Origin: Obelidium mucronatum
Taxonomy: Eukaryota > Chytridiomycota > Chytridiomycetes > Chytridiales > Chytriomycetaceae
DNA: 64,000 bases
Reading direction: 5' to 3'
Assembly (NCBI GenBank): GCA_025765595.1
Contig: JAIVFH010000012.1
Span: forward strand, 186,001 to 250,000
Numbering within the stretch: the first letter of the stretch is position 1; each line of letters opens with the position of its first letter. A model generated the notes under the pieces. The model was not told where the DNA came from and made no database searches. It was given only the letters and a program-made list of their open reading frames with translations. Of the stretch, positions 2,014 to 64,000 are shown in pieces. The position numbers and the translations under genes were made by a program.

Positions 2014-2221
2014 TTTGCATGAGCCTTTTGGGAGAATCGGTGATGGGTGGAGGGAGTGGTTTTAGAGATGTATCGAGGTGTTGAATGATGGGTATGATCC
2101 TATGTCTGTGCATTCACTCGCACCCAGTGCACCCTTGGAATGTGTTATTTCTCGATCCTATGTGTTTTCTCGTTCTTTCTTTCTTTCTCTGTTTGTCTCT
2201 TTGCCAATTCTCGGACAACCA

Positions 2222-4616
2222 ATGTCGCACCTCCAAACAAACCAAACCCGCAAATGCGACTGCTGCCTGACAACGCACAGCGTCCAGTGGCGAAAAGGAC
2301 CGCATCGCTTCGATGTTCTGTGCAACAAATGCTGCTTGCGGTGGAAGCGCGGCTCGCTCAAACTACAGGCTGGAGACAGTGAGGGCGTCGAACTGCGGCG
2401 CGCAGAGAACAAAGAAGAAGAAGAACAACAAGAACAAATAGAAGAACAAGTAGAAGACGAAGAACGGGCAGATAAAAAGCCCAAGATGGGCGCTCATAAG
2501 AAGATCCGAGAAACGAGGGCAAAGGCTGTCAATCAAATCCAACTGCCACCACCGCGAAGAACGACGCAGAAGTCGGCTGCTGCTGTCGTGGTGAAACCCA
2601 AGCAAACAACGGCTTCCGTGAAGAAGAAGGTATGAGCAGACGAGGAAAGTCCCCCTTCTCATCTCCAACTTTCAAACTCAGAAGAGTGCCAAACGTGCAC
2701 CCAAGAGAGCTAAAAGCCGAAGTAATCGAGCCCCAGCCAAACCACCAGCGAGTCTAATACCCGCCAAAAAAGATGATGAAGCCGATGGAGACGAATATGA
2801 CTACGAGTATTCAGAGGATGAGGATCCAACAAAAGTATACTGTTACTGTCGAAAAAGATACGACCCGAACCTCTTCTATATTCAAGTAAGCAGTTCCATC
2901 ATATTTTTCTTCAAAAACTCATGTGTGTCTCTTGACGTTTTTTCAAGTGCGATGGATGTGATGAGTGGTATCATGGAATTTGCGCCAACATGAAAGAGGA
3001 GGAAGCCGAACGGATTTTCCTCTGGTTCTGCCGTATTTGTGAACGCGATAGCGGCAGACGCCCTGTCTTTAAAAAGTTTTGCGCCGGTTGGCTGGCCGGC
3101 GAAACATTCCGAGAACAGTCCCTTCTTCTGGAGCAGCAGCTTCAGCCTTTTAAACAGCAGCAGCAGCATCATTCTTTTGGTCCTTCAGCAGTTGGAGAGC
3201 GTCTCACTCCAGAAACAGACGCAACTACTCCCTCAATATCAGATTCCCCAGAATCTCCTCCACCCATAGCAGACTCCCCGGAATCCCCACCACCCACTCC
3301 GGATTTCGTTGAATACGAGCATCTGGATTTCATTGATATCGAGGGATTAACCGAAGAGGCATCCGAATCCATCAACATTGAAGCAATATCTGTGCCCCAG
3401 TCCCCGTTACCAGTCGCGGTCAATCCACAACAACCCGAAAATCAGGAACCACGCGCATCAAAGGAAACAACTACCAATGCCAATGCTGACAAAATCTACA
3501 ACCATCACTTGAACCTCCTTCAAAAACAGCACCTATCCCATCTCTACCAAACACTTCCAACATGCCTCAAATATCTTCCAGATCCAATCGCTCCGCACCT
3601 GTTGCCCACAGAGAAAAAGACCACCGCGTCTTCGTCTTCTGCTGCTGCAGATTCCATGTCTACAATCAGTGGGGGAACCAATTCTCGATATTGCAGCGAC
3701 GTTTGTGGGAAAAGTATCTCGTATTATCACTTGCACAAGTCTCTCCCATCTCTGCCTATCCGCAAACACATGCACCCGCTCGTGAAACTGTTGGCACAGC
3801 GAAATGAAGACTTGCCAAGTCTAGAGGCCTTTGACGCGATAGACAGTGACAGGCTGAAAACATTATGGAAAGAAAAGCGGACCGCGAAGCAATGGGTTCA
3901 AGTGTGGGAGGAAGGGCGGAAATTGATTGATTTGTGTGTGTTCCGGAAGAAGGCTGTGAATTACTTTTTGGGGGCTGCTGCTTCAAGGATGGGGAATGAT
4001 GATGATAAAGAGAATAGTTTAATTGCTGGTGAGGAGGAGTTGGTGGTGCGGAAAAAGAGTTCCAAGAGGAAGAAGAGGAGAAAGAATCGGACAGAAGATG
4101 ACGGAGAGCTGGCTGTTGCGGATGAAGGTACAACGAATGCTGGCGTTGCTGAGATTTGCGGATTTGATACCCGGATTGTAGATGTGTGGTTGAAGCGGAT
4201 TGATAGCGGCGAGGCTTTAGAAAATGGGGTGTTGGTTATTTCCGACAATGACAGTGTAAATGAGGAGAACGAAGCCGACGGACTAGGAGGTAGATTGGCG
4301 GACCCTGTGTATGGATTAGATCTGGACGCTTTGTCATCGGCTTCTACCATGCTTGAAGTGCAGAATGCAGTTCTCCCGACAATGTGCTCAACACCAGGAG
4401 ACCGATGCAAATGCCATATAGATTGGGAAGAACTGAGACTTCAAGAAGTAGATGCTCATATTGAGTTATTGGTATGTAGCAATCTTGTCTTCATCATTTT
4501 TGCTAAGAAGCAAGTTTCTGTTCAAGATGGAAAAGGTGGGCGAAATCGTTGCCGAGGAAACAACCATTGTCGATAGAATGCGTAAACGAAGAACGCTAAT
4601 GGCTCTCACTTTGTAA
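2222..4616 (+). CDS. GATA-type zinc finger plus PHD finger protein, Spp1/CFP1-like (COMPASS subunit candidate)
   Basis: Four exons (2222..2629, 2682..2885, 2948..4471, 4527..4616) give about 741 aa. Near the N-terminus is a GATA-type finger, C-x2-C-x18-C-x2-C, with VQWRKGP and LCNKC. After a Lys/acidic linker comes a PHD finger around residues 190-240: CYCRK, CDGCDEWYHGIC and WFCRICE. The C-terminal half has the Spp1/CFP1-type pattern, RYCSDVCG followed by CKCHIDWEELRLQEVD and a short basic tail. Spp1/CFP1 proteins are H3K4me3-reading subunits of the Set1/COMPASS methyltransferase in the nucleus. The GATA finger is not part of the usual family layout (animal CFP1 has a CXXC finger). A more distal ATG at 2078 is in frame, but the DNA before 2222 is a CTTT-rich leader, so the MSHLQ start is preferred. 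Confidence 0.65.
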
Positions 4617-4707
4617 TATTACATAAAGAAGATCGTTTAATTTATTTACTCTATGACAAATAATTGTAAATAATTGAATTTCAAATTTACTGTCAACCTG
4701 TAAAAGC

Positions 4708-5949
4708 ATGGATTCAGAGATTGGTTTAGCGGTTCTAGCAGCCATCGCCACATCATTCCTTATCTACCGACTACTTCTTGCCCCGCTTCCCTTCTCTGTC
4801 CGGGATATCCCGGATTTGACTGGGAAGACGGCAATTATTACGGGAGCAAATTCAGGTCTTGGATTCGAAGCTGCCAAGGCAATGGCGTCCAAAGGTGATA
4901 TACGAAATACTTGACTAAATCATCTGATTCATCTTTGAAATTCTAAAACCTCAATCTATGTGTTCAGGCTGTCGAATGTACGGTTTGCTTGCAAGTGGGA
5001 ACGTGTCTTTTCTACTTACTACCCTCATATCAAACAGCATCATGGCCTGTCGCTCAGAAGAGCGCGCCCTTCAAGCCATCAAAGAAATCAAAGAAACAGT
5101 TCCTGACGCCGACCTCGCGTTTATGAAATTGGAGTTAGCTGATTGGGATAGCGTCAAGGCTTTTGCTGGAGAATTCTTGGCCTCCAAGAAACCACTTCAT
5201 ATTCTAATGAATAACGCAGGTAGGGGAATGATTTAAACAAAGGATGCAGTCTTTTTTTTTCAATCTTCTTTTTATTGAACTTTGTCTTTTCAAAGGAATC
5301 ATGGCACCACCGAAATTCCAAAAGTCAAAACACGGCATCGAACTCCAAATGTCTGGAAACCATTTGGGCCATTTCTACCTAACACTCCTCTTGATGCCGA
5401 TTCTCGAAAAGACGGCAGTCGCAGCAGCCAAAACCGGAGACTCCATCCGGATCGTAAACCTTGCCTCCATCGGCCACAGAATTACCTACTGGCGCGGCAT
5501 TGATTTCAGTAAAATGACAGACCAACGGGGCTACCAACCGTGGCTCGCCTATGGCCAATCAAAACTGTCTAACATCCTCTTTTCGAAACAACTGCAACAT
5601 CGGATCGACAAGCGATACCCGCATTTATCCAATATATACGTGAATGCAGTGCACCCCGGCGGAGTGTCTACAAATCTTGGATTTCAAAGTGCAAATGTTG
5701 GGAGTCTTGTGGAATAACCCAATCATGCTGGGTGTGGCTCTTTCTCCGAGTCAGGGCGCGTTGACGCAGTTGTATTGTGCAACGTCAAAGGAGATTGTGT
5801 GGAGTGGATATAAGGGTTGTTATTTTGTGCCGACGGCCAGGTTGGCGACACCCAGTTCTTGGGCGTGTGATGAGAAGCTGGGGGGTGAGTTGTGGGACTG
5901 GTCTGTGGATGTTTTGACCAAGGAAGGGTTTAGTGTTCCCAGCTTTTAA
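4708..5949 (+). CDS. Short-chain dehydrogenase/reductase, retinol-dehydrogenase type (copy 1), one frame break
   Basis: Exons 4708..4894, 4968..4977, 5038..5219 and 5296..5949. An N-terminal hydrophobic anchor precedes [18 protein letters not shown] (Rossmann TGxxxGxG), NNAG, a catalytic Ser region, and YGQSK (YxxxK), then the VHPGGVSTN loop. Such enzymes are NAD(P)H-dependent oxidoreductases, often ER- or peroxisome-anchored; the substrate is unknown. Exon 2 is a 10-nt micro-exon, needed to keep frame and giving [13 protein letters not shown], and it recurs in the next gene. Near 5700 the frame shifts by +1. Removing one G from GGG (5700-5702) restores a full C-terminus ending KEGFSVPSF. This is either an assembly indel or a young pseudogene. 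It is a tandem duplicate of the gene at 6066. Confidence 0.8.
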
Positions 5950-6065
5950 AAAACGAAGAGTTTGGTTTGTTGCGTCAAATAGGGAAATCAAATTTGATGA
6001 CAAATAACCTCAAATTACCAACCGTTAAAACATTACAAAAAAATCTTGAAAAGAAAAGAAGCTCT

Positions 6066-7428
6066 ATGTTTGTGAGTCCTGAAAGACAATCTGCCCATCA
6101 CTCTACGGCTCTAAGAAACATAACCTGTAGAGTCTATTTCGCTCAAAGTTCAGCGCCACAGATGTTCCCGACTTGACAGGAAAGACTGCCATCATCACTG
6201 GATCTTCCTCTGGTTTAGGACTCGCCTCCACTTACATGATGGCAAGCAAAGGTGCAGATAGTATTCTCACAAATCCTCTTTGAATGAAATGCATAAACCT
6301 TTTACTTTTGTAGGTTGTCACATGTTAAGTGAAACGAGTGGTTAAAAAAAGCGGCATTATTCTGACAGTTACACCCAACTTGAACCATTAGCATCATGGC
6401 TTGCAGATCCGAAGAGAAAACGCGCGCAGCAATCGAAGAATTGAAAAAAGTTGTTCCCAACGCCAGTGTTCGGTATATCGGCTTGGATCTGTCAAGTCTT
6501 GCCAGTGTTCAACAGTTTGCAGATCAAGTCAAGAAGGAAAAAATCTCCATCCATATTTTGATGAACAATGCGGGTATGGAATCAGTTTTTTTTTTTTTTC
6601 GAAAAGAGAGAATTGAATTCTTTTATAGGAATTATGGGGTTGGAGAAGTTCTCACTGTCCAAGAATGGTATGTGTTCAAAAGCATAAAATTCAATTTCTA
6701 AAGTGGTATCTATTCTATTATAGATATCGAACTGCAATTCGCAAGCAATCACTTGGGTCCGTTTTATTTAACGTCACTGCTTCTCCCCATCATTAAAGAA
6801 ACAGCTGCGTCTGCGGGGAGTGCAAGAATCGTGAACCTCTCGTCCATGGCTCACACAACGTCTTACAAGGCTGGTATCGATTTTGCAAACATTAACAGTG
6901 CAGAAAGTTAGAGCTTTTTTTTTGTTACACTTGCAGAATCTGACATCCAAAACAACCAGCTTACAAGCCATGGCTTGCATACGGCCAAATCAAACTCGCA
7001 AACATCTTGTTTACAACCCAACTCCAAAAAAAACTCGAGGAAAGTGGCGTCACCAACATTTACGTCAATTCTGTTCATCCTGGAATGGTGTCCACTAATT
7101 TGGCGAGCGGCGCGAATATTTCTTGGGCGTTGAGTACCCTTGTAAAGCAAGTGGCAGCAACTCCAGCAAACGGGGCTTTAACTCAGGTTTCTTTATTTTT
7201 TTGTTTTTCTTTTGTATGAAACTAATGATTTCATCTTATATCAACAAAAAAAGGTGTATTGCCACGTCGAATGAGATTGTTGAAAAGGGATACAAGGGAA
7301 TGTATTTTGTGCCAACGGCAACAGTGGGTGAAACGAGTGCACAAGGAAAAGACGAGAAGGTGGCGCGAGAGTTGTGGGAATGGTCAACAACAACGTTGAA
7401 GTCGAAGGGGTTTATTGACAGCGAATAA
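6066..7428 (+). CDS. Short-chain dehydrogenase/reductase, tandem copy 2, frame break in last exon
   Basis: Eight exons: 6066..6071 (only ATG TTT), 6131..6251, 6314..6323 (10-nt micro-exon), 6392..6573, 6629..6667, 6724..6906, 6960..7186 and 7254..7428. Family motifs are [30 protein letters not shown] as YxxxK, and [10 protein letters not shown]. It is more intron-rich than copy 1, with three extra introns, but shares two intron positions and the micro-exon. The last exon is one base out of phase: dropping one G of the GG at 7253-7254 restores ATSNEIV, matching ATSKEIV of copy 1. The exon starting at 6960 was chosen because the nearer AG at 6935 leads to a stop. Function is as for copy 1; the substrate is unknown. 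Confidence 0.75.
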
Positions 7429-7448: not shown

Positions 7449-7811
7449 TCAGTTGTTCTGGTCGTCGGGGTCGTTGTACCACTCGATAAACTTGTCCCTT
7501 GTCTGCGGCGGCAGTGACTCGAGATACGCCGTCAGCCGCGCGTTCATCTCAGCCAGCGGCATCTCGCGCGCCGCCTGCAGCGAGTAGTGGTCCGAGTGCT
7601 TGTGATCGTGGAACACGCAGAAGCCCTCGGGCACGGCAGTGGCCTCCTGCATGCGGAACACGCGCAGCTGAGGAGAGTCCGCAGGGAAGTCCGCAAGAAC
7701 AGCGACCATCTTCGGCGACACCGGCCACAGCGGCAGCGACAGCGGCTGCGACGCTGCCACCGGCAGGCGCGGCTGGATGCGGAAGAGTGTGCGCGGGAAC
7801 ACAGTGTAGCG
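7449..7811 (-). CDS. Small protein resembling fungal Tse2-type ADP-ribosyltransferase-fold proteins; 5' exon unresolved
   Basis: An open frame of about 120 codons, GC-rich compared with its AT-rich surroundings. It opens at an AG acceptor (7813-7812) into RYTVFPRTLFR and ends PDDQNN. No in-frame ATG is available, so an upstream exon or a non-AUG start must exist. The N-terminal FPRTLFRIQ, a central RVFRMQEA, and the C-terminal VPEGFCVFHDH..SDHYSLQ followed by LAEMNARL recall the small Tse2-like family (a bacterial type VI toxin fold with fungal homologues of unknown role). This assignment comes from remembered family features only. Expression, activity and any toxicity are unknown. It sits back to back with the lectin gene at 8050. 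Confidence 0.4.
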   Translation of the reverse strand, partial: RYTVFPRTLFRIQPRLPVAASQPLSLPLWPVSPKMVAVLADFPADSPQLRVFRMQEATAVPEGFCVFHDHKHSDHYSLQAAREMPLAEMNARLTAYLESLPPQTRDKFIEWYNDPDDQNN

Positions 7812-8049
7812 CTGTGTGAGAAAAAGTTTTACTTATTAAATAAAAGCCTGAAGGAGAATTGTACTAACTAATAAATGTATTTTTAAATGAAAATGACAAA
7901 TTACCAGACAATTATCAATAATTGTGGCTGATCTTTCCAGTGTCTCTTTTAATCCCAGCCACAAAAGGATTTAAACAGCTCGACAAAGAGCAACAAAATG
8001 TCCTTAAAAATCAATCACATACCACAAAATATCAATGCACTGTTGGACC

Positions 8050-8560
8050 ATGGCCTCCCTTTTTTTATTTGGCGCCGTTTCTTCTCGTCGTGTAGGACTC
8101 ATTGTGGATGAAGGAAAGACCTGTTTGATGGGTGGAGAAACCATGAACAAAGACGACTATATGTTGGCACCAGCTGGCCACGTTCAGCTTACAATGCAGG
8201 TAAAGCTCCTCCCAAAAAAAAAAAAAAGTTCACCACCAAAAAAACTTAAAATAAATCCAGAGTGATGGAAACCTTGTTGTCTATGGTCATGATAATCCAA
8301 ATTGGTGCTGGTTTTATTGGTGCACGTACAGGGCTCGATGGGCAACAAATACTGTTGGTCAAGGGAACGTTTTTGAAAACCACATGAACGGAAACTTGAT
8401 CTTGTGGAGAGGCGACGGGCAATGGGCTTGGTCATCTGGAACAGTCTACAATGCTCCAAAGCATCTTTGTATCCAAGACGACGGGAACTTGGTGCTTTAT
8501 AATCAAGATCAATACAGTGATCGTGATGCAGTTTGGGCTACAAACACAGATTATAACTAG
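8050..8560 (+). CDS. Bulb-type (mannose-binding-like) lectin domain protein 1
   Basis: Two exons (8050..8199, 8261..8560), 149 aa. A short hydrophobic start (MASLFLFGAV) may be a signal peptide. The B-lectin repeats are visible as SDGNLVVYGHD, MNGNLILWRGD and the best copy DDGNLVLYNQD, with the usual Trp-rich turns (WATNT, WAWSSGT). Bulb-type lectins bind mannose through QxDxNxVxY motifs; here the first position is Q or I-Q with DDGNLVLY, so one site looks intact and others are degenerate. Probably secreted or vesicular. The intron interrupts TMQ|SDGN exactly as in the paralogue at 22816-23407. An upstream ATG at 8035 would lengthen the N-terminus by five residues. Confidence 0.8.
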
Positions 8561-10507: not shown

Positions 10508-13090
10508 TCATATAAAACTGTAACCAACTTCTTCCTCCGTTTCACCTCCCTTCACAGCACCCTCCTTTTTCTCGGCAGCAGGACTCGCCGCCCTCTGTTC
10601 CTCGTCTTGGTGAAACAAAAGATTCTGCGTTGAATTCCCACCCGCATCACCAACTACAAACGGTTCATGTTCCGCCAAGCTTCCATTCTTCTTTTCTTGA
10701 GCAGCAGCGGCTTCCTGTTCCTTTTGCAAATCGGTCAAGGAATCAAACCATCCACCTCCCCATGATCCAACAGTAGACCATAACTTTTTGGCATTCGTGC
10801 TTACGCTTTCTATGGCCTTTGTCGCGTTCTCTGGAAGAAAAAAAAAAGCACAAAAAAAAACAATTTCACACATCAGCTTCCTAATTTACATGTCTCTCTC
10901 CTCCACACTAATTTACCTTGCATTACATTGGGATCCTTGAATCCAGCAACAACAGTCGCGAATCCTTCCTGGGCCACTTTCCCAGCATTCAATGCAGCCA
11001 CCTCGGCGGCTTTCCCAGCCGTTGACAAGGCATGTTCAGCAACTTTCCCGAAATCTTGCGCTGCTTCCTTGGCTGTTGTGAGTGTCGTTCCAGCAGCGCT
11101 TCGGGCTGTCGATACCGCTTGCTCCAATTTCTCTTTTTTAACGGTGACGCAATAATAATAAAAAAAAAGTATATCGTTTAGATTTGAAGTGCCTCTTTTT
11201 TTTTTGTAGGTTTGTGTATTACCTGCCATCACTTTCTGTTGTTCCATTGACGTAAAATTCGTGACAGCCGACGCGATCCCGGCTTCAGCTTGCACAAACG
11301 CTTTACTCAAGTTTGTTTGGATAGGCGCCAAGGTTGTCTGAAGACCCCTGAATGCACTCGTTACGGGATCATCGTCTGCGACACCGTGTTTAGGATGACC
11401 AGGAGTTTTCAACCTGTTTCCAGAAATAAATAAAAAAAAACACAAAGAAGGCGAAGATTTTAATGGCGACAAGGCCACAAAAAAAAAGAAGAAAGAAAAA
11501 GAAAGACTTTGTACTCAACAAATCGCCTGGATTACTAACGGATCCGCAACCCACTCCTTGTAGTTGTCTGTTTCCATCCATAATTCGATCCAAGCGTAAT
11601 TGAAGTCAGCCAACAGATCCTTGTCTACCACTAAATATACATTAACTACAGTATATATTGAAAAAAAAGAATAAAGAGTTACTAACCTTCAGTATCATCC
11701 AACTCATCCAACCCACTCCCCGTCATCATAGTGTGTTTTGTTGTTACAAGGAGAGACGTGGTGTATTCCTCGAATCGTGCGCGAATGTAATTATCACTTC
11801 CTTCATAATCACCCAATTGATCCGAATTGAGATCATCTATGGGAATTCAAGCCAAAAAAAAGGGGGATCAGCAGTGGTTGCACCTTTTGTATCGTTTACT
11901 AATTCCCGTTACCGTGATCATAGTCCCATGAATCAATCACAGTATCCACGAGTTCTAAAGACAATTGAGACGGAGTTCCATCAGCAATGAATGAACGATA
12001 AAAAAAAAAAATAAAAAAACAAGTTAAAAAAAAAAAGGAAACCTTCAATAAAAGCGCGATCCGCTCCACCCAACGCGATTGCACTGGATAAACTTGAATT
12101 TATCAAATCAATAGCTCCAGTATCAGTCTTTTAGAATTCGGTGGGGATTGAGTAAAAACCATATAAAAAAAAGAAAAGAAAGATGCTTACGTTAATAATC
12201 GCATCAATATTAGCACCTCGTTGAACAGCGAAAATGGAATTACTTGTCCCAAAAACCCACGCCTTGATATCCGGACTCGTCAACAAATCAATCTGATGCA
12301 ACGAAATAAACGGCAAGAACCACGATTCTTTGCCAAACAGCTTCAACGGAAGCCCCAAACTCTCCCAATGCGACGCCGTTGACGCCAACCTCAAATCCGC
12401 AGCACTCTCTGCATTTGCAGGCAACAACGCGTCTTGCGGTTTCAATGTACAAAGCGACCGCAACAGCCCTGGAAACAGAGATAGAATGCCGTATTGGGTT
12501 TGTCCGAGTCGAGCCGTGTTTGTCCCAAAGAAGAGCACGCGGCGTTGGAGGAGGAGGAGTTTAAAGATTTGAAGCAGGCTTCCTTTGAATGTGGTGACGG
12601 TTTCTCTGAGTTTTAAGCCTGTTGTCAAGTCTGAATCGGGTATGTAGGAGTGGAATGTGTTTTTCAAGGTTTTGTAGAGTTCCTGTGTGTTGAAGGGGTG
12701 AATGAAGGGAATGAATGAGAGAAACGCGGTATGAAAGAGAAAACAAAAGGGATTCACCGCCGAAGGCGGTGTGGGGGGAGAGAATGAAGGGAACGAATGA
12801 GAGACACCGCCTTTGGCGGTTTGGAAGGGAAATCAAAAGGAGGGATTCACCGCCTACGGCGGTGTGGGAGGGTGAATGAAGGGACTGAAGGATGAAGGTG
12901 AGAATGAAGGATATGAAGGAAAAGACACCGCCTTCGGCGGTAGATGACCGCCTTCGGCGGTGTTGACTGCCTTCGGCAGTATCTTCGGCGGTAAAAGATT
13001 CACCGCCTTCGGCGGTACACAACCGCCTTCGGCGGTACACAACCGCCTTCGGCGGTGTTGACTGCCTTCGGCAGTATCTCGCCTTCGGCG

Positions 13091-13167
<77 letters not shown>

Positions 13168-14687
13168 ACATTATTACATCAACAACAACCAAATTCGAAA
13201 AATCCCTTTGATGAAAAAAAGCCCTTGTAACCAAAATCAACTTATCGACAACCAAACTAGAAATCAAGGGTTCAGTGGAAAGAACGACAAGAGCTTTTTG
13301 AACCATAGAACGCGTAACATCGGTAGTTTTGACTGTTAAATCGGAAGCAGGAATTTGACGAAAACAAGAGAGTCCGTAGATTCTGGGAGAACCAGAGATT
13401 GTAGGAATTTGAAAGTCTTGGGAGTTTTGTAAGTATCTTGTGTTTGAAAGGAAGAGATCTTGAAGTGGGAATATGAAAAGAAAGAATACACCGCCGAAGG
13501 CGGTGTACCCGACCGCCTTCGGCGGTACGTGAAAAGAAAGAATACACCGCCTTCGGCGGTGTACCCGACCGCCTTCGGCGGTACGTGAAAAGAAAGAATA
13601 CTCCGCCTTCGGCAGTGTACCCAACCGCCTTCGGCGGTGGACCCGCCTTCGGCGGTACGTGAAAAGAAAGAATACACCGCCTTCGGTGGTACGTGAAAAG
13701 AAAGAATACACCGCCTTCGGCGGTACGTGAAAAGAAAGAATACACCGCCTTCGGTGGTACGTGAAAAGAAAGAATACACCGCCTTCGGCGGTGTACCCGA
13801 CCGCCTTCGGCGGTACGTGAAAAGAAAGAATACACCGCCTTCGGCGGTGTACCCGACCGCCTTCGGCGGTACGTGAAAAGAAAGAATACTCCGCCTTCGG
13901 CAGTGTACCCAACCGCCTTCGGCGGTGGACCCGCCTTCGGCGGTACGTGAAAAGAAAGAATACACCGCCTTCGGTGGTACGTGAAAAGAAAGAATACACC
14001 GCCTTCGGCGGTACGTGAAAAGAAAGAATACACCGCCTTCGGTGGTACGTGAAAAGAAAGAATACACCGCCTTCGGCGGTGTACCCGACCGCCTTCGGCG
14101 GTACGTGAAAAGAAAGAATACACCGCCTTCGGCAGTGTACCCGACCGCCTTCGGCGGTGGACCCGCCTTCGGCGGTACGTGAAAAGAAAGAATACACCGC
14201 CTTCGGCGATGGACCCGCCTTCGGCGGTGGACCCGCCTTCGGCGGTACGTGAAAAGAAAGAATACACCGCCTTCGGCGATGGAACCGCCTACGGCGGTGG
14301 AACCGCCTTCGGTGGTGTGGCTTCGCCTACGGCGATGGGATCCCGCCTGTGAGTGTGGCGGGCTGCAAAGCAGTTGAATAAACACGTACAGACAAGATTG
14401 GCGCCATCATCTTCAGACTCGACACTCAAAGAATGGGCGCCATCAGGAATGCACAAGAAAGGCTGTAGTACATGGACTTTAAATTGATTGTTTTGGAATT
14501 GAAAAACAAAAAAGACAAAACAAAAAGCCCCAACCAAGACGGCGAGTTCATCGGGCAACGCGATGCCCGCCTGCTTTGAAGCGATCGTGCTCTGTTGTTC
14601 AGTATCGAAAGCAGGAACAGCGTAGTCGATCTGGTTCCCGTTCCTGTGGTGGAAGGAAGCGACGAGAACGTGCGTGATGAAAGACAT
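10508..14687 (-). CDS. AVL9: AVL9 homologue (DENN-superfamily late secretory protein), 11 exons
   Basis: Complement exons: 10508..10830, 10917..11132, 11223..11413, 11540..11630, 11687..11836, 11913..11954, 12043..12127, 12191..12682, 13190..13382, 14386..14462, 14535..14687; total 2,013 nt, 670 aa, all phases consistent. AVL9 hallmarks in order: ITHVLVASFHHRNGNQIDY, LPFLCIPDGAH across a splice, YGLSCFRQI, DVTRSMVQKALVVLS, FFHQRDFSN, RVLFFGTNTARL, GILSLFPGLL, FISLHQIDLL, VFGTSNSIF, YIRARFEEY and FNYAWIELWMETDNYKEW, then an Ala/Gln-rich helical tail. Avl9 acts in exocytic vesicle formation at late Golgi or endosomes. The introns at 12683-13189 and 13383-14385 are filled with hairpin arrays. 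The start codon lies 23 bp from that of epsilon-COP on the other strand. Confidence 0.9.
12754..13090. repeat. GC-rich hairpin repeat cluster in AVL9 intron 8/9 position (genomic 12683-13189)
   Basis: About a dozen copies of the hairpin ACCGCC-nnn-GGCGGT and the covariant form ACTGCC-nnn-GGCAGT (near 12967 and 13059), separated by spacers that are pyrimidine-rich on the AVL9 sense strand. The first copies (12754-12870) have loops GAA, TTT and TAC on the plus strand; later ones are all TTC. Confidence 0.95.
13091..13166. repeat. Poly(A)/poly(T) run of about 76 nt beside the hairpin cluster
   Basis: An uninterrupted A run on the plus strand, a T run in the AVL9 transcript sense, 23 bp inside the 5' splice site at 13189. 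Its exact length is likely unreliable. Confidence 0.95.
13488..14340. repeat. Tandem hairpin array filling an AVL9 intron, with a 288-bp higher-order period
   Basis: Roughly thirty copies of ACCGCCTTCGGCGGT (plus strand), each a 6-bp perfect stem with a 3-nt loop, set in the spacer ACGTGAAAAGAAAGAATAC or GTACCCG. A marker variant (ACTCCGCCTTCGGCAGT) recurs at 13599 and 13887, showing a 288-bp tandem duplication. The array lies wholly inside the intron 13383-14385 and ends a few tens of bp from the splice site. Confidence 0.97.
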
Positions 14688-14710: not shown

Positions 14711-17144
14711 ATGGCCGACACAGTCGGTAAGAAACAAGAGAGAGGACAGTGACCGCATCTAACAACACCGCAGACGAACTGCACTCGCTGCGCAAGGCGT
14801 TCTTCCTCGGCGGGTTCCAGCAGGCAGTCAACGAGGCGGCGAAGCGCGTGGCGCCCGCAGCGCAGGGCGAACAGAAGGCGGTGCTGCACCGCGCGTTTCT
14901 GGCGCAGGGCCGCCGCGCGCTGGCGCTCGACGTCGCTGCGGCTGACAAAGACTCGCCGGAGCTGCGCGCGCTCGCGGCGCTGGCGGCCGCCGACGCCGAC
15001 GCCGCCGCGCGTCTCTTTGCGACAACAACGGCGACGGCGACGCCGCTGCTCGCCGTCCTCGTCGCGTCCGCGCTGTTCAACGCCGCGCGCTTCGACGACG
15101 CCCTGGCCACGCTGCATGCGGCTGTCTCGCAGCGGGACTTTGACGTCATTGGCCTCAGAGTACAGACTCTCGTGGCGCTAAACAGACTAGATCTGGCGCG
15201 GAAGGAAGTCGCGGCAATGAAGGCCTGGGCTGATGACGCTACTCAGGCTCAACTCATTGAAGCTTGGATCAATCTGCTCGATCCTGAAAAGGCCAATGAC
15301 GCTTTTTACACTTTTGATGAACTCGTGGCTTCAAATACTGCTACCGCTAAACTCTTGACTAGTAAGGCCGTCGCTAAAATTCAGTCAGGCGACTTTTTGG
15401 ACGCCGAAGCTGTTTTGACTGAGGCTTTGAATTTGGTTCGGTTAAAGTACGCCGAAGGCGTTAAAGAAGTACGCCGAAGGCGTGAAAAACCACGCCGTAG
15501 GCGTGGACAGCACCGCCGTAGGTGGTGTATTTCTTTTTTTTTTTGTTTTTATACCGCCGTAGGCGGTGAAAGTACGCCGAAGGCGTAAAAAACCACGCCG
15601 CAGGCGTGGACAACACCGCCGAAGGCGGTGAATTCTTTCTTTTTTTGTTTTCATACCGCCGTAGGCGGTGAAAATCTTTTTTTTTCCTATACCGCCGAAG
15701 GCGGTGAATTTATTTCTTTTTTTTCTTCATACCGCCGTAGGCGGTGAATTTCTTTCTTTTTTTTTGAAGTACGCCGAAGGCGTGGAAAACCACGCCGCAG
15801 GCGTGGACAACACCGCCGAAGGCGGTGAATTTCTTTCTTTTTTGTTTTCATACCGCCGTAGGCGGTGAAGTCCACCAACACCGCCGAAGGCGGTGAATTT
15901 CTTTCTTTCTTTGTTTCTATACCGCCGTAGGCGGTGAATTTCTTTCTTTTTTTTGTTTTTATACCGCCGTAGGCGGTGAAGTACTTTCTTTTTTTGTTTT
16001 CATACCGCCGTAGGCAGTGAATTCTTTCTTTTTTTGTTTTCATACCGCCGTAGGCGGTGAAAATCTTTTTTTTTCCTATACCGCCGAAGGCGGTGAATTT
16101 ATTTCTTTTTTTTCTTCATACCGCCGTAGGCGGTGAATTTCTTTCTTTTTTTTTGAAGTACGCCGAAGGCGTGGAAAACCACGCCGCAGGCGTGGACAAC
16201 ACCGCCGAAGGCGGTGAATTTCTTTCTTTTTTTGTTTTCATACCGCCGTAGGCGGTGAAGTCCACCAACACCGCCGAAGGCGGTGAATTTCTTTCTTTCT
16301 TTGTTTCTATACCGCCGTAGGCGGTGAATTTCTTTCTTTTTTTTGTTTTTATACCGCCGTAGGCGGTGAAGTACTTTCTTTTTTTGTTTTCATACCGCCG
16401 TAGGCAGTGAATTCTTTCTTTTTTTGTTTTCATACCGCCGTAGGCGGTGAATTTCTTTTTTTTCCTATACCGCCGAAGGCGGTGAATTCTTTCTTTTTTT
16501 GTTTTCATACCGCCGTAGGCAGTGAATTTCTCGCCGTAGGCGGTGAATTTCTTTTTTTTTCCTATACCGCCGAAGGCGGTGAATTCTTTCTCTTTTTGTT
16601 TTCATACCGCCGTAGGCGGTGAATTTCTTTTTTTTTCCTATACCGCCGAAGGCGGTGAATTCTTTCTTTTTTTTTCATACCGCCGAAATTCTTTCTTTTT
16701 TTGTCTTCATACCGCCGTGTGAATCCCTTTTTTTTGTTTTTATACCGCCGTAGGCGGTGAGTTTCTTTCTTTGCAGTTCGTATCGCTTTTATATCTCTGT
16801 CAATACACATACCCTCCCATACCATACCACACCATACCACACCATACAAGTAACTAACCCATCATTCTATACCAGAACAACAATGAACCTGAAGCATTAA
16901 TCAACTTGATTGTTTGTGCCCATGCAACCGGCAAACCAGCCGAATTAGTCACACGTCTCACAAAGTATTATAATCATTGTGTTGTTCTTTTTCGTATAGT
17001 ACCGTTTTCACTTATTCTTTTTTTTTTTTCTTTCCTTCCCATCCCAGCCAACTCCGAGATGCTGCTCCAAATCACGTTTACCTACAAGAACTGTCGTTGA
17101 AGGAACAAATGTTTGATCGCAGTGCTCAGCGATTTGCTCTTTGA
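14711..17144 (+). CDS. COPE: Coatomer subunit epsilon (epsilon-COP)
   Basis: Exons 14711..14726, 14750..15435, 16876..16964 and 17048..17144; 295 aa (animal orthologues are about 308). Family motifs: DELHSLRKAFFLGGFQQAVNEA, AVLHRAFLAQG, LVALNRLDLARKEV, TQAQLIEAWINL, FLDAEAVLTEALNL, PEALINLIVCAHATGKP, LRDAAPNHVYLQEL and a C-terminal FDRSAQRFAL. A TPR-like solenoid subunit of COPI that stabilises alpha-COP in Golgi-to-ER retrograde vesicles. The only usable ATG (14711) requires a 23-nt intron, GTAAGA...ACAG, to reach the main frame; otherwise a frame error or non-AUG start must be assumed. The first 600 bp are very GC-rich. The 1,440-bp second intron is almost entirely hairpin repeats. Confidence 0.9.
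15448..16760. repeat. Tandem hairpin array filling the second COPE intron, with a 389-bp duplication
   Basis: Dozens of short palindromes of two types, ACCGCC-GNA-GGCGGT and (C)ACGCC-GNA-GGCGT(G), with loops GAA, GTA or GCA, separated by spacers such as GAATTTCTTTCTTTTTTTG. A block starting near 15668 is repeated almost exactly at 16057, offset 389 bp. Some units are broken (for example 16680 and 16712). Repeats run from just inside the 5' splice site at 15436 to about 115 bp before the acceptor. Confidence 0.97.
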
Positions 17145-31468: not shown

Positions 31469-34400
31469 ATGTTTCTTGAAGTGGATTGTCAACTTTGCAG
31501 AACGTCGCTGTTCCTCGAAGACAACAGTCCTCTTGAATCCGAAGAAGAAGACGCTCAAGGAGTTTGGATTGATTGTGGCCATGTTATCTGTAATTCGTGT
31601 GTAGCCCTACAAATCTCATTGGATAAGGAGAAGCTATGCCCCTGCGCAGAATCCCACTCTTTGAGCGAAAGCCCCTCAAAATCAACGGCTGAAGTGATTG
31701 ATCTCACTCTGGAGGACGCTTACTTCACATGTTGCAATGATTTGTGTCGTAAGGTGCTGACAATTGGACGAACACTTGAACTGGAAGCAAACTATCCAAT
31801 GATTGTTTGTATTTATTGCGAAACCAAACTTTGCTGCCAATGCCGCTCGATGTGGCACCTGAACGGAGTTTCCTGCTTGGACCTAAAAGGAAAAGGAAAA
31901 GGAAAGGGAAAGGAGGCCAGGATTGTGCTACCAGAAGCTGACTTTGACAATGCGAATCCCAAAAAACTCCAAGAACGCCACATATCAATTAGGAAGGAAG
32001 CTACCGAGAATCCTTTCAAAAGACGCGCCATTGACTTGGGTAGTGAAGTAACAGACGTCGATGCCCTTACGGCTTCCTCCCTGAGACATGATATACCCCC
32101 AATTGATTCGAATGAGCTTCCTGAGTTTGTCCAGCTTAAGCTAATGGACGCACTGGATTTGGTACACGCCAACGAACGAAAATCGAAAGAAATGTTGGAC
32201 ATTGTTGAATCATTGAAGTCATTGGGCTATTATTCTTTTCTAGAAGCGATGATGGGCGACTCGGTAGATTCGGAGGTGGGAGCGATGTTTGTTTTTCCAT
32301 TTGATTGTTTTCTCATAATTATGCTCATTCAAAGAGTCCGTGTTCATCCAGTGCAAATACACATACAAGTCAAGCATCTATTTCTAAACCCTTGCCAAAA
32401 TCGCTGATACGAAAGGTATCGCGTGCTCCAAATGAGTCTTCTGGTATTAACGCTTATTCCAGCCATCTTTGAACTCGTCACAATCACACCATAGCAGAAT
32501 ACTCAACAGAACCTCAATTCTCAAACATCATGGATCGGTATTCTCTTCAAGCCCATCAAAGTCATATTTGTCTCCGATATACTTCAGTCGCGGTTCTCCC
32601 TTTTACCTCATACACTTCCAACCAAGCAAAAACCCACCTTGGGAAAAAGACTTTTTCAAACTCACCCCCACAATGCTCCTCCCTTATACCCTTCCAAAAA
32701 AAGTGTCAATAATTCGTGTCAACTACAAGGGTACTCATCGGAAAGATGATTTGGAAAAGTATCGTGAGTTTTGTGAAGCTGGGTTCAATGATACACACGA
32801 ATTTTTCACATGCACGAGAGCTATGCTTGAAAAGCGGGACTGCTTAATGATTGAGCGGGGAAAGCGAGACGAAGTAATGCGGTACCTATCCCTGGACTCT
32901 GTAATGGATGTATCACGAGTTGTAAAGTACAGCGGGCTGATGATGAATGAATTGGAAAGCGGCGTCGAAGAAATAACGAATGTATTTGTCAGAATACAGA
33001 GTGATATTACAAGGATGGGATATAATTTCACCGATGGTTGTGGACGGATCAGCCGCGATTTGGTCGTGCAGCTGCTACCGAATGCGAATCCTGTTCCATC
33101 TGTTCTTCAGATCCGGGCCCCTGGATTGAAAGGCGTTTTAGTTGTTGATCCGACACTGGAAGATCGCACTGTTGTATTTCGGAAGTCAATGCAAAAACTC
33201 AACATTCTAAAAATACAAGGAGAAGGAAGAGTTGAAAAGTTGCCGATTGCTGTTTTAAATTATTCCAAGCCACTCCTCTGCAGGGGTTTAAATATGCAAG
33301 TTATTTACATTTTGTTGGAAAGGGGCGTGAATGCCAAAGTAGGTGTGATCAATTGTAAACAGCCAACGCTAAATCGAATTTCAACAGATGATATCAGAAA
33401 AAGATTGCCAATACAAAAATGCTGTGAATCACGCTTTGGTGGATATTCAAGCCGCCTTTGATTTCCTCTACATTTGCGGCCATGACCGCGAATTCGAGGA
33501 ATTACAGAACATTCTGTCCAAAACATATTCTCGCAAAGAATCTTTGAAATCTTTCTGGAATCGATTAAAGACGTTGCAAGCAAGCCAAATCGGGAAGTGG
33601 CGGAGAGGAAAACAAACCAACCCTCCCCATTCCGTTCGTGACGATCCAGACGAACGACTCGAAGATATTGATCCTGAACGGAGAGTGGTTCTTCCAATCC
33701 GAAAGTCAAATCTGCTATTTGGAGTCTGTGATCACCGTGGTATTCTAGAACCTGGGCAATGTTATGCCCATGTTTTGTTGCCAAATGGAAAATCCGAAGT
33801 CTTGAAAGGACGAGTCGCCATAATGCGGAACCCTTGCTACCATCCTGGAGATGTTCTGCTTGTTGAAGCTGTTGATTTGGACGTATTCCATTCAATACAC
33901 AACGCGATTGTGTTTTCTGTCAAAGGAGAACGACCTGCAGCAGACGTATGTAGTGGCGGTGACCTGGATGGAGACCGTTTTCTTGTCATATGGGACTCCG
34001 ACATTTTGCAAAATATGAAACCAGTGGCAACTTTCGATTATAGACCCCATGTTGTAGCACGTTGTATCAGTCAGACAGTTTCGAAATTGGGTATCCTCAC
34101 TGCGAAGCAATCCTTGAAAAGGCGAAGGGCAAATGACGAGGACGCAGACGTAATTTCTGGCGCTTCAAAAACGGATCTAATTGACTATCTTATATCCCAC
34201 GGCTCAAAAGATACAATTGTCGGTCGAATTGATGCTCTCCTTTTGAATTTCCAAAAGTTTGAGTTTCAACCAAACGCAAAGTCGATTTTAACGCGAGATG
34301 AACTTGTTTGCCTATTGACGGCCTTATTTGCAGCCAGCGTCGATTCCATGGGAATTGATGTGGATGCCATGGTCCATGCAGTATTGAAGGAGATCAACAA

Positions 34401-35076
34401 CAGCAGAACTCCCAATTTATCGGTGTTTAAGATGCTGCACGAGGAATGCATTAGAAATACAGAAGCTACAGCTACATTCGTGAAAGCGTACGAAAAGCAA
34501 GCAAGTTTGTTGTTTTCTTTGTTCATGGATAGTGTGAGAGAGGGCCATGAAATGTGGAAGTCTCCAGTGGAAAAGTTTATACCAAGCGAGGTTAACAACC
34601 ACTACGGTTTAACTGCCCGTCTGATGAACGCTCGACGGCTTGTTCACCCTCAAGCAACAAAAGGCGTTATGGCATCCTTGTTGGACAATGACTTTGATCT
34701 GTTACGGGGGTGTTTGGATGAAAATACGTTTATGACATGCTGCCAAGCTGTAAGTGGACTGGAAGCTAGGATTGATTCGAGCTTAAATGCTTGTCAGGTA
34801 TGCTTTCATAACTATTTTGTAAACTTACTGGCCTAAAGTACTAAGGCAGTCGGAAGAATTGACTGCGATACAGTTCTCGGAAGATGTTATTTTGTTTGAG
34901 AAATGCTACAAGAATAGGCTAGAGTTTGAAAATCTCTTCAATCTACACGCATGTTTTGGTCGGATTATCCGCAAGATATGTAGTTTGGTTAAACGGCACA
35001 ATAACCAAAACAGCATGTCTCAAAACATCACTACAAATGTGGGCAGGATTCTGAAGTGTGAACTCGATATGATGAA

Positions 35077-35168
<92 letters not shown>

Positions 35169-37538
35169 TGTGTGTGTGTCAACTTGCTAAGGTGTGACTC
35201 ATTAAAACCGTTTCACTACAAAGTGGACTTCCAATCTACCCTTCGAGAATTGCTTTGATGGATTGCTTCCACGAAAATCGCGTTATGCTAGTAGTTTCCG
35301 AAACAGGTGGCCCTTTTCATATTTAGGAAGACTCGCATTAACTTTTCCAAAGGGAGCGGAAAATCAACGTGTACCCCAAACTTCGTGGCGAACGAACTTC
35401 TCATCAATGACCCAAACCTGGCGGCAAAACCTATTATTGTTGCTCAACCTCGCCGGGAAGCCACGACTACGTTAGCGCGGCGCTTGGCAAATTCGCGGAA
35501 AACAAAGTATGGCGAAGAAGTTGGGCACCACATTGGCCGCTCCAGTGCCCAAGGACGAACACCAATCATTCGCTGCGTTACATATGGTATTCTGCTCCTT
35601 TATGCGCAGAAAGATCCGGACTTGGCGGACTTCTCTGTCATCATTCTGGACGAAGTTCATGAATCATCCAGTGACCTTCACTTTTTGTTTTCGATTCTGG
35701 AAAGGGCGCTCACAGTAAACTCAACTTTGAAAATCATTCTCATGTCTGCTTCAGTTAATATTAGAAGCATTACAAAGTTTTTTGAAGGGTGTCAAGTGAT
35801 AACCGTTGATGGCCGTAGCTATCCCGTTGAAGAGGAGTACAGCGGCATCCTTTCGCTCCAACCGGATCAATACGTTGCAAATGCTATAGCCAAATGCAAA
35901 GAAATCCATGAAAATGAGCCAATTGGGGATAATCCGGACGTTTTGGTCTTTTTACCAACAAAACGGGATATCGATGAAGCCGTGTTTCGATTGAGGATCA
36001 AGAATCCCGTTCCAAACCTTCACGCGTTTCCTTTCCATTCAAAGATGGGCCGAGAAAAGAAATCTTTTATCTTGAATCGACATCCTTTGGAGGACTGGGT
36101 GAGACTGAGTAGGAAAGATCGAGATGTAGGTTGATTCTTGTTTTCGAAGAACAGTACTGATGTCTTTCATTGAAATAACTCAGTATCAACAAAGCAGTTT
36201 TTTAATCGATGTGGATGAGGATGCTGAAGTGATTGAAGTGATTGATTGGGAAGTTAAAGTCGAAACTCCACCGACGAACAGTGAAACCTCACGCCGCGTA
36301 ATTTTTTGCACCAATATCGCCGAAACATCTCTCACGATTCCTTCAATTGGATATGTGATTGATTCTGGGCTTCAGTATACTGTTGATGTTTCTCCCATCA
36401 TGAAAGTTCGGCATGGAAAGCTACAACCAGCTGTAAGTGAATATTATTATTGGTTCGTGAACTCATTTTATTTTAGACAAAGACTTCTGCTATTCAAAGG
36501 AAGGGGCGAGCAGGCCGCTTAGGTCCCGGCAAGTGCTTCCGTTTGTATTCTCTCGAAGATGCAGAAGAATTTCCAACCGAATATCCCGCTGCTCCAAAGA
36601 GCTTTGAAATTCACCTGCTTCAAATAATTGACGTGTTTCAAGACCTGCTCACCTACAATTGGTTCAAGAAACCGTTGGATGCTGAGGTTGGTTGGGCATG
36701 GAAGGTGCTCGTTGAGTCTGAGTTTGCAGCCGAAGATGATGTGGAGTGCAAGCAAGTTATATTGCCTGACGGCAGAATTGCAATGGAGTTCCTTCGTCAT
36801 GATGTTTCGAGCGAGATGGTTTTGTTTTTACTTCGTGTCTGGAGGTCACCCGACGCTGGAGATGACATTCGAGACCATTGCGCAACCATTGCAGCTTTCC
36901 TGTCTTTTGGTACTGCGGATATCTTTATCGATGGATTCCGATATAATGATTTCGTGAAGGCGGGATACCCAGAGGAATTTAAAACTTTCAACAGCAACGA
37001 CGCATTGCCATCGAGTTTTTGTAAAGCGAATCTATTTATTGTTTGGTCAAAACTTGGAAAAGAGGAGCGCGAAGTTTTTTGCGATAAGATGAAGCTGGCG
37101 TCGTTTGGAATGGAATCCATCAACGAAATTCGGCAATTCATTGTAAACTACTTGGACGGCCGGAATGTTGGCAAGGAAGAAAGAGAGGGCAAACAAAAAC
37201 GGGCCATAAAAATGAGCGCCCAAGACCGACAAAATTTTATATTGGGAAAGCTTGGGGAGGGATGCTTTATGAATTTGGGCTTTATTACTGACCGTGGGCA
37301 GTCGGTTGCGTTTGTTGTCAACGACGAATACTGCATCGCAAAATTGGACCAGACTGAAGCAAGCATGTTTGGATCAAAGAGCGATTGTGGATTGGTTCTA
37401 TTCCATTCAATTAGGCGGCAAGCGAGCTCTTGGGATCAATTTATTGTTGGGCACATTGACCCATTGCCTGGATGGCCAGCAGTGATACCTAATTCGTTTT
37501 TAGCAAAGTATTTGGACTATGATCTCTTTCAAGCTTGA
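31469..37538 (+). CDS. RING/IBR-like zinc region + RNA-dependent RNA polymerase + DExH-box helicase fusion
   Basis: Nine exons (31469..32275, 32335..32415, 32463..33338, 33388..34797, 34850..35079, 35224..35306, 35353..36125, 36184..36432, 36477..37538) total 5,571 nt and join in phase without a stop: 1,856 aa. Residues 7-59 form a RING-like C/H pattern (CQLC, CGH, CNSC, CPC). A SUMO-interacting motif VIDLT lies at about 76-80, then an IBR-like Cys set to C136. The RdRP core spans about 350-1000 with FTDGCGRIS (about 485), RNPCYHPGD and the catalytic DLDGD (about 780). The helicase begins near 1140 with SGLPIYPSR, Walker A GSGKST (about 1164), DEVH (about 1262), SAS, NIAETSLTI and QRKGRAGR (about 1510), then a C-terminal extension. 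Expected role: making and unwinding double-stranded RNA in RNA silencing. Confidence 0.85.
35080..35180 (+). repeat. (GT)n microsatellite forming the 5' end of an intron in the RdRP-helicase gene
   Basis: About fifty GT units with one GGGT interruption, starting at the first intron base after ATG AAT AG. The intron (35080..35223) ends ACAAAG and joins RdRP to helicase exons in frame. Confidence 0.9.
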
Positions 37539-62734: not shown

Positions 62735-63980
62735 TCAGTTTATTATTTGATTATCCCGCAAATTTTGGCGACTCAGAACAGAGTCTTTTGAACAAAAAGC
62801 TGTATGAATTGAAGCCAACTGTGTTTCAGTAAACAACGATGCGTTCCCAACTTCTGTAAACAACTCTAAGGCCTTTTGTGCTTGCTGCAAGTACGCGTTT
62901 TCGACAGCCATCCTTCTCTTCACTGTACGTTCCCAGGCTTCAGCTTTTGACTTGTTGTTGCTTGCTGTAATGGTCCCAAGAACAACATTCCAATGATTCT
63001 GAGCTCGGGATTTGTAATATTCGACTACATTGCGCAAACAGCTTCGGTGATGGTAAAGGTCCTCAAGCAGCCTCCAAAACATGGTTATTACTGCCTTGAT
63101 TTGACTTTGTCCTAAAACATCTGGCACAACAGCAAGTGCGCTTTTAACCGCAGCAAACGTGAGAGGGGCCTCTTCAATTGGTTCCATTTCTGATCATGAG
63201 CGACTTCAGTAACAATCCAGAAAATAATAAAACAAGTACCATTAAATTCTCGCAACTTATAGTATATGCTTGCAAACGTTGTTGATAGAGCCTTTTTGAG
63301 TCTTGACGCCATTTTAGTACCAGGGCCCCGTTTTAAGTGCTTGTCGATTGAAACAATAGTTCGGGCAAGATCATCAATCTGGAGGCGCAATTCATCCTTT
63401 GATGAGAGCAAGTCTGCCCCAAGGCGATTTAGCAGCCTTTGGCGGGCAGCTGTTGTTTCCTTTACCACATCATCGTAATTTGATTCCATAGCAGTAGCCC
63501 AATTATCGGCAAGCATTAATCGAATGCTATCCAACTCAGAAAATGCTCCAACGAGTTTGGTTACTGTCCATGACACAAGCCCTCGAATCTTTGACTGATT
63601 ATACTGTTCACACACTAATACAATATCCATGTGTCGATTCTCTGCTGTTTCATGTTGAGTAAGCCGAATGCTTCGTGACAAGTAACTATGAACTCGTTCA
63701 ACGCCTTCGCCTTCAATAGTCTTTCCCAAACCATGAATTTGCCGCGGACTGAACAGACATTGACAGTCTTTTCCATGGGCATAAACGTGCATGGCTGGGA
63801 TAAATAGAAAGAAAAGCTCTTGATCAATAATAGAACTCAATTTGCGGTGGGCAATTAGATGAGACAGTTCTTTGCAGGCAACATCATATCCCAAGACAAA
63901 CGCTCGACCGGGAAATGATTCCAATCCCCAACGGATAACATCATCTGCATACCAAAGAGGTTCTCCACCAAAAGGAACAT
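62735..63980 (-). CDS. KDZ (Kyakuja-Dileera-Zisupton) transposase, C-terminal part; 5' end outside window
   Basis: Complement(62735..63189, 63240..63980) with an AG acceptor at 63982-63981, so earlier exons lie beyond position 64000. Recognisable KDZ blocks: GRAFVLGYDVACKEL, FIPAMHVYAHGKDCQCLFSPRQIHGLGKTIEGEGVERVHSYLS, then AENRHMDIVLVCEQYN and a long helical region, with the last exon rejoining REFNEMEPIEEA. The acidic residues of the GEGxER motif are intact. KDZ elements are cut-and-paste DNA transposons common in early-diverging fungi and basidiomycetes. The part seen has no stops or frame breaks, so it may be young. Confidence 0.8.
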
Positions 63981-64000
63981 CTGAAAATAATAGTGAGATC

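What the first reader, a model, noticed from the sequence alone, without database searches (positions are those of the whole stretch)
31469..37538. Single gene encoding RING/IBR-like zinc region, RdRP and DExH helicase
Three modules that are normally separate proteins join in frame over nine exons (5,571 nt, no stop). RdRP motifs (FTDGCGRIS, DLDGD) and helicase motifs (GSGKST, DEVH, NIAETSLTI, QRKGRAGR) are complete. The junction SLNACQ|SEELTA and MMN|SGLPIYPS are both phase-consistent. RdRP plus Dicer-type helicase is known in Dictyostelium, but there the helicase is N-terminal and of another class; I do not know of a RING-RdRP-DEAH order. It suggests a self-contained dsRNA synthesis and unwinding machine, possibly SUMO-tethered via VIDLT.
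Basis: partly seen in the sequence, partly recalled or inferred. Interest (0 to 1): 0.92.

Follow-up and report, generated by a model that had tools for sequence, protein, structure and literature searches.

The report
Chytrid RNA polymerase fused to helicase
A chytrid fungus carries a gene that joins a zinc-finger region, an RNA-copying enzyme of the RNA-silencing kind and an RNA motor in one protein; relatives with the same copier-then-motor order turn up in other chytrids, a water mould genus, a diatom and environmental samples, so the fusion looks real and old, though no transcript has been seen.

Summary
A nine-exon gene (31469-37538) encodes 1,852 or 1,856 aa: RING/IBR-like zinc region, cellular RdRP (DLDGD), linker, and a DEAH-type helicase with its C-terminal winged-helix/ratchet/OB module. 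It is not a private oddity. RdRP->DEAH order occurs in 25 of 251 database proteins listed by three searches (chytrids, Aphanomyces, a diatom, metagenomes) and in a second, diverged gene of the same genome that shares three introns at identical column and phase, one exactly at the helicase start. In the domain trees the non-diatom fusions hold together; the diatom helicase falls outside, so a separate joining there is likely. The RdRP part is sister to mostly Dikarya RdRPs that carry an SF1 (Upf1-type) helicase at the same end. The genome has Dicer and Argonaute genes. Most likely role: dsRNA synthesis for RNAi with a helicase in cis, a one-protein counterpart of fission-yeast RDRC. The SUMO idea is unsupported; the RING/IBR is plausible, a RING is seen in one other species, and RING2 is lacking. 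No transcript evidence; one allele as assembled is frameshifted near the C-terminus. New variant of a known kind (RdRP-helicase fusions); not found described in the papers searched.

The parts
31469..37538 (+). whole gene, ATG to stop, nine exons: 31469-32263, 32335-32415, 32463-33338, 33388-34797, 34850-35079, 35224-35306, 35353-36125, 36184-36432, 36477-37538
   Evidence: donor of intron 1 may be 32264 or 32276
31487..31645 (+). RING-like zinc motif, residues 7-59 (last pair is CxC)
   Evidence: below Pfam cut-offs
31694..31708 (+). VIDLT, SIM-like motif, residues 76-80; absent beside the Physocladia RING
31730..31876 (+). IBR-like zinc motif, residues 88-136; no RING2 follows
   Evidence: below Pfam cut-off
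32463..34797 (+). RdRP region in exons 3-4 (HMM hit residues 403-880, then a C-terminal part to residue 1054)
33961..33975 (+). catalytic DLDGD, residues 776-780
34798..34849 (+). intron 4, between RdRP C-terminal part and linker; reading through it meets a stop ending at 34836
34850..35079 (+). linker exon joining RdRP and helicase; 33 of 72 residues identical to Siphonaria P0001, 11 of 73 to the own-genome paralog
35080..35223 (+). intron 5, phase 2, mostly a GT microsatellite; same alignment column and phase as intron 4 of the own-genome paralog
35224..36566 (+). DEAH helicase core, two RecA domains (introns at 35307-35352, 36126-36183, 36433-36476); end approximate
35649..35660 (+). motif II DEVH, residues 1258-1261
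36495..36518 (+). motif VI QRKGRAGR, residues 1506-1513
36567..37535 (+). winged-helix / ratchet / OB module of DEAH helicases

Best explanation
It is a cellular RdRP of the RNA-silencing kind fused at its C-terminus to a complete DEAH/RHA-type RNA helicase, with a RING/IBR-like zinc region at the N-terminus in this gene. The RdRP copies single-stranded RNA into double-stranded RNA that the organism's Dicers can cut. The tethered helicase moves 3'->5' on RNA (recalled for this family), the direction in which an RdRP reads its template, so it can run ahead on the template and strip structure and proteins. It is thus a one-protein counterpart of RdRP-plus-helicase complexes such as fission-yeast RDRC. 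The zinc region probably serves protein contact or ubiquitin E2 binding. Shown: gene structure, domains, motifs, conservation, presence of Dicer and Argonaute genes. Inferred: all activities, the RNAi role, the direction argument and the role of the zinc region.
For: Open nine-exon gene. RdRP before DEAH in all 27 of 254 scanned rows that hit both domain HMMs: 25 of 251 listed database proteins, the window gene and the own-genome paralog on C76; the gap between the hits is 201-398 residues, 578 in the diatom. Paralog: the exon with DLDGD stays open through the linker to the helicase-start intron, and 3 of its 5 introns share column and phase with 3 of the window's 8. Linker conserved in close relatives, 33 of 72 and 33 of 77 identical. 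DLDGD in 25 of 27, Walker A 26, DExH 26, motif V 26, motif VI 24; the misses look like partial or gapped gene models. Helicase tree (23 of the 27 fusions used): 22 non-diatom fusions plus P0153 on one side of a 100/100 branch. RdRP tree (20 of the 27 used): all 20 in one clade, 97/88. DEAH C-terminal fold. Own genome: exon-level matches, haplotigs included, to Piwi (20), RNase III (13) and Dicer dimer (6). Alleles: dN/dS about 0.23; residues 1132-1591 17 synonymous to 3 nonsynonymous. RDRC = Rdp1 + helicase Hrr1 + Cid12 (passage of PMC2965749).
Against: No transcript, protein or small-RNA data. The database fusions are automatic gene models, some probably merged with neighbours (P0002 with a nucleotidase, P0149 with a Prp43-like helicase). 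Linker identity falls to 10-14 of 66-75 in distant members. The C134 allele as assembled is frameshifted and ends after residue 1604. A third, unfused RdRP exists on C490, though interrupted there, so RNAi need not rest on this gene.
Confidence: 0.68

Rival explanations
1. Two tightly packed, separate genes: the RdRP ends at the stop inside intron 4 (34836) and a DEAH helicase starts at an ATG in the linker exon (about 35015); gene predictors merged them in every genome.
For: The stop exists if intron 4 is kept; an in-frame ATG lies in the linker exon; some database models are probably merged; the linker is poorly conserved in distant members.
Against: In the own-genome paralog there is no intron there and the exon with DLDGD stays open through the linker; the helicase-start intron is shared at the same phase. 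In close relatives the linker is conserved from its first residues. All 27 keep the order, 26 with a gap of 201-398 residues.
Confidence: 0.07
2. The fusion is real but works outside RNAi, for example in RNA repair, rRNA or mRNA quality control, with the RdRP part acting on helicase-delivered RNA.
For: The DEAH helicases closest in sequence (PRP43, PRP22, HrpA) act in splicing, ribosome assembly and rescue (recalled); the three Dicers read here keep their own helicase motifs, so no lost Dicer helicase needed replacing.
Against: Eukaryotic RdRPs with known roles act in RNA silencing (established knowledge); Dicer and Argonaute genes are present.
Confidence: 0.15
3. The gene is decaying: paralog B or another RdRP does the work and this locus is only partly functional.
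For: One allele frameshifted in the C-terminal module; RING/IBR below cut-offs; alleles differ by 10 nonsynonymous to 7 synonymous codons in residues 1-330.
Against: The window allele is intact, its catalytic motifs are kept, and dN/dS over the whole gene is low with 17:3 in the helicase core; the frameshifts may be assembly errors.
Confidence: 0.1

Closest known systems
Helicase-RdRP proteins of Dictyostelium (RrpA/B/C), peronosporomycete oomycetes, Hydra, Nematostella
   Same: one polypeptide with helicase and silencing-type RdRP
   Different: there the helicase is N-terminal and DEAD-box, described as Dicer-like (passages of PMC4791657, and PMC3661229; Pythium P0025: helicase 287-743, RdRP 1182-1740); here it is C-terminal and DEAH-type with WH-ratchet-OB
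Mostly Dikarya RdRP-SF1 helicase proteins (e.g. P0008, P0013, P0021, P0041)
   Same: RdRP first, helicase at the C-terminus in the 4 of 4 checked; sister of the RdRP-DEAH group in the RdRP tree
   Different: helicase is superfamily 1 (AAA_11/AAA_12, Upf1-type by recall), after a longer spacer (about 700 residues)
Fission-yeast RDRC (Rdp1-Hrr1-Cid12)
   Same: RdRP working with an RNA helicase (passage of PMC2965749)
   Different: separate proteins; includes a poly(A) polymerase, which was not seen in this gene
DEAH/RHA helicases PRP43, PRP22, HrpA
   Same: helicase motifs and C-terminal module
   Different: not fused to an RdRP; here an insert, acidic and long in several members, lies between motifs IV and V
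Seminavis robusta P0036 (diatom)
   Same: RdRP 145-625, then DEAH helicase 1149-1511
   Different: its helicase falls outside the chytrid/Aphanomyces fusion clade, on a long branch; C-terminal Cys-rich stretch with no Pfam match

Membership tests
Eukaryotic cellular RdRP (PF05183) | Pfam match over cut-off | tested here: met
   78.4 and 129.3 bits vs 23.8
Eukaryotic cellular RdRP (PF05183) | DxDGD catalytic motif and similarity to solved RdRPs | tested here: met
   DLDGD at 776; Arabidopsis-type RDR2 chain 7eu0_M E 5.8e-25, 2j7n (QDE-1 by recall) E 2.1e-12
Eukaryotic cellular RdRP (PF05183) | RNA-templated RNA synthesis | not testable with these tools
   needs purified protein
DEAH/RHA helicases (SF2) | motifs I, II, V, VI | tested here: met
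DEAH/RHA helicases (SF2) | WH-ratchet-OB C-terminal module | tested here: met
DEAH/RHA helicases (SF2) | ATPase and 3'->5' translocation | not testable with these tools
   needs biochemistry
Dicer-type helicase-RdRP proteins (Dictyostelium/oomycete kind) | helicase N-terminal to RdRP | tested here: not met
   helicase hit 1128-1570 follows RdRP 403-880
Dicer-type helicase-RdRP proteins (Dictyostelium/oomycete kind) | Dicer/RIG-I-type helicase | tested here: not met
   best PDB relatives are PRP43, PRP2, PRP22, DHX8, DHX15, HrpA
RBR ubiquitin ligases | RING1 and IBR | tested here: inconclusive
   spacing patterns met, Pfam scores below cut-off; single-sequence model poor, pLDDT 43
RBR ubiquitin ligases | RING2 with catalytic Cys | tested here: not met
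   residues 137-330 hold one Cys
SUMO-targeted ubiquitin ligases | conserved SIM beside RING | tested here: not met
   no VIDLT-like motif in the Physocladia protein, the only other one with the RING

The most novel reading that the evidence does not exclude
Cellular RdRPs have been joined covalently to RNA helicases several separate times, with three helicase classes and at either end: DEAD/Dicer-like N-terminal (Dictyostelium, oomycetes, cnidarians), SF1 C-terminal (mostly Dikarya), DEAH C-terminal (chytrids and Aphanomyces), and a separate DEAH joining in a diatom. A motor in cis is then a general need of dsRNA synthesis, met by whichever helicase was at hand, and the chytrid enzyme is a complete dsRNA factory with a zinc recruitment module.
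Probability: 0.35. Interest if true: 0.78.

Novelty: new variant of a known kind. Interest (0 to 1): 0.58.

Why it matters
How an RdRP copes with structured, protein-coated template RNA is an open point; helicase partners are known as separate subunits. A single polypeptide with both activities fixes stoichiometry and can be expressed and tested. The pattern across fungi (related RdRPs, different C-terminal helicases) makes helicase coupling a comparative question. RNAi in chytrids seems little studied.

Tried and rejected
Two-gene reading: rejected on the paralog's intron-free junction, the shared phase-2 intron and the linker conserved in close relatives, short of cDNA proof. Fusion unique to this genome: rejected. 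Dicer-type helicase: rejected. Compensation for Dicers that lack a helicase, noted for other lineages in PMC4791657: not seen; 3 of 3 Dicer loci fetched show all five helicase motifs sought. Seminavis C-terminal Cys cluster as RING/IBR: no Pfam match at E <= 10, so not claimed. The 22 non-diatom fusion helicases as a clade of their own were rejected by the AU test (p 0.000114) because P0153, not labelled a fusion, nests inside; its first residues resemble the RdRP end of P0152 by eye, so it is probably a partial model. Left out of the trees: P0143, P0145, P0148, P0195 (helicase tree) and P0004, P0143, P0145, P0148, P0149, P0154, P0195 (RdRP tree), most with partial domains. Whether Aphanomyces got the gene from chytrids or by descent: unresolved. 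Structure of the RING exon from one sequence: not usable, pLDDT 43. Whether other species have the RING: mostly untestable; in the window the RING ends 344 residues before the RdRP hit, and 3 of the 25 database fusions (P0002, P0148, P0149) have that much sequence there, of which only P0002 has a RING core. Lists are capped at 120 of 148 and 120 of 2,353 hits, so counts of fusions are lower bounds. Ten literature searches (69 and 71 aimed at known relatives) gave no description of an RdRP-DEAH fusion in the listings or the passages read; the library holds open-licence PMC papers only.
Full report
What is there. The window is C12:186001-250000 of a 48.3 Mb, 694-contig genome. The closest named relative of the gene is from Siphonaria sp. 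JEL0065 (Chytridiales, Chytriomycetaceae), so I take the organism to be a chytrid of or near that family. The finding's gene splices into one frame through nine exons. Exon 1 has RING-like and IBR-like zinc motifs, exons 3-4 the RdRP with DLDGD, exon 5 a linker, exons 6-9 a DEAH helicase. Intron 5 is mostly a GT microsatellite; the C134 copy is 76 bases shorter there and no tandem array is found in it. Two donors for intron 1 are possible, giving 1,852 or 1,856 aa.

Is it one gene? Four lines say yes. First, the copy on C134 is collinear over the 10 kb fetched, two pieces at 97.9 and 95.9% identity, so I read it as the other allele; its coding indels before 36753 are 6 and 3 bases, and codon differences are 56 synonymous to 45 nonsynonymous over about 1,226 and 4,333 sites, ratio about 0.23. 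By region (synonymous:nonsynonymous): residues 1-330 7:10, RdRP 19:19, linker 1:2, helicase 1132-1591 17:3, the rest 12:11. The zinc region and linker alone show no constraint at these counts. Second, contig C76 carries a diverged gene, 34% identical, with the same RdRP->DEAH order. Its exon with DLDGD stays open through the linker; 3 of its 5 introns coincide in column and phase with 3 of the window's 8, one being the phase-2 intron at the helicase start. Third, the linker is conserved in close relatives, 33 of 72 residues with Siphonaria and 33 of 77 with Rhizoclosmatium, but only 10-14 of 66-75 in the paralog, the Chytriomyces copies and Blyttiomyces. Fourth, 25 of 251 listed database proteins, plus the two own genes, hit both domain HMMs, all with RdRP before DEAH; gaps between the hits are 201-398 residues, 578 in the diatom. 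P0149 also has an N-terminal DEAH that looks like a merged Prp43-like gene. None of this is transcript proof.

Against: as assembled, the C134 allele has +1, +1 and -1 base changes at 36753, 36876 and 36923 and stops after residue 1604, losing most of the C-terminal module. Assembly error and a real truncated allele are both open.

Distribution and history. The database fusions are from Siphonaria, Physocladia, Entophlyctis (two species), Rhizoclosmatium, Chytriomyces, Blyttiomyces, Phlyctochytrium (two species), Irineochytrium, Clydaea, Aphanomyces (two species), Seminavis and unnamed sources. Of those looked up, Siphonaria, Physocladia, Entophlyctis, Rhizoclosmatium, Chytriomyces, Phlyctochytrium and Irineochytrium are Chytridiales, Clydaea Lobulomycetales, Blyttiomyces of uncertain place in Chytridiomycetes, Aphanomyces an oomycete and Seminavis a diatom. 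In the helicase tree (44 rows, 23 of the 27 fusions) the 22 non-diatom fusions plus P0153 form one side of a 100/100 branch; the diatom helicase lies with ordinary DEAH helicases on a long branch. In the RdRP tree (49 rows, 20 of the 27 fusions) all 20 form one clade, 97/88, again with a long diatom branch. Its sister, 100/99 for the pair under midpoint rooting, is a group (95/64) of nine RdRPs that I labelled RdRP-SF1, mostly Dikarya (P0009 by eye from its end, P0010 by its Pfam list), and two without a listed helicase, P0012 and P0014. In the four RdRP-SF1 proteins checked the helicase follows the RdRP; in the oomycete P0025 a helicase precedes it.

How it probably works. The genome has Argonaute and Dicer genes; 3 of 3 Dicer loci fetched show all five helicase motifs sought, so the fused helicase does not stand in for a lost Dicer helicase. 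Inference: the RdRP makes dsRNA for Dicer; the helicase in cis clears the template, since both motors go 3'->5' along it (direction recalled for DEAH helicases). Fission-yeast RDRC has the helicase as a separate subunit (passage of PMC2965749). The zinc region may recruit a partner or an E2. The SUMO proposal rests on one five-residue motif whose like occurs in 3% of whole-protein shuffles and which the Physocladia protein lacks.

Novelty. RdRP-helicase fusions are known from Dictyostelium, some oomycetes, Hydra and Nematostella, with the helicase first (passages of PMC4791657; PMC3661229; PMC4030286). Ten searches of open-licence PMC papers found no account of an RdRP-DEAH fusion in the listings and passages I saw, though the proteins lie in public databases under automatic names. 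I therefore call it a new variant of a known kind. In PMC12663654 and PMC4290597 I saw passages only; none described it.

Names of motifs, the RING, IBR and SIM patterns, the Upf1 likeness of the SF1 helicases and the copia and lipase labels are recalled or read by eye, not from a family search.

Noticed in passing
L011 (C490) 3-1712 and 7577-8248: A third, non-fused RdRP gene of this genome is interrupted by an insert carrying a long ORF that reads like Ty1/copia (2119-7197, minus strand; by eye).
   Followed up: partly
window 12927-14316 and 15467-16772: Dense arrays of short GC palindromes with TTCG or GAAG/GTAG centres (CCGCCTTCGGCGG and kin), in tandem repeats of many periods.
   Followed up: no
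window 63115-63999, minus strand: KDZ (Kyakuja-Dileera-Zisupton) transposase match (64.6 bits), close to the window end.
   Followed up: no
P0036 residues about 2275-2461: The diatom RdRP-DEAH protein ends in a Cys-rich stretch resembling paired zinc fingers, with no Pfam match at E <= 10.
   Followed up: partly
P0008, P0013, P0021, P0041 and kin: Many listed Dikarya RdRPs carry a C-terminal SF1 (AAA_11/AAA_12) helicase and are sister to the RdRP-DEAH group in the RdRP tree.
   Followed up: partly
paralog B, P0006, P0007 (helicase region): An acidic insert of very variable length sits between helicase motifs IV and V in the fusion proteins.
   Followed up: no
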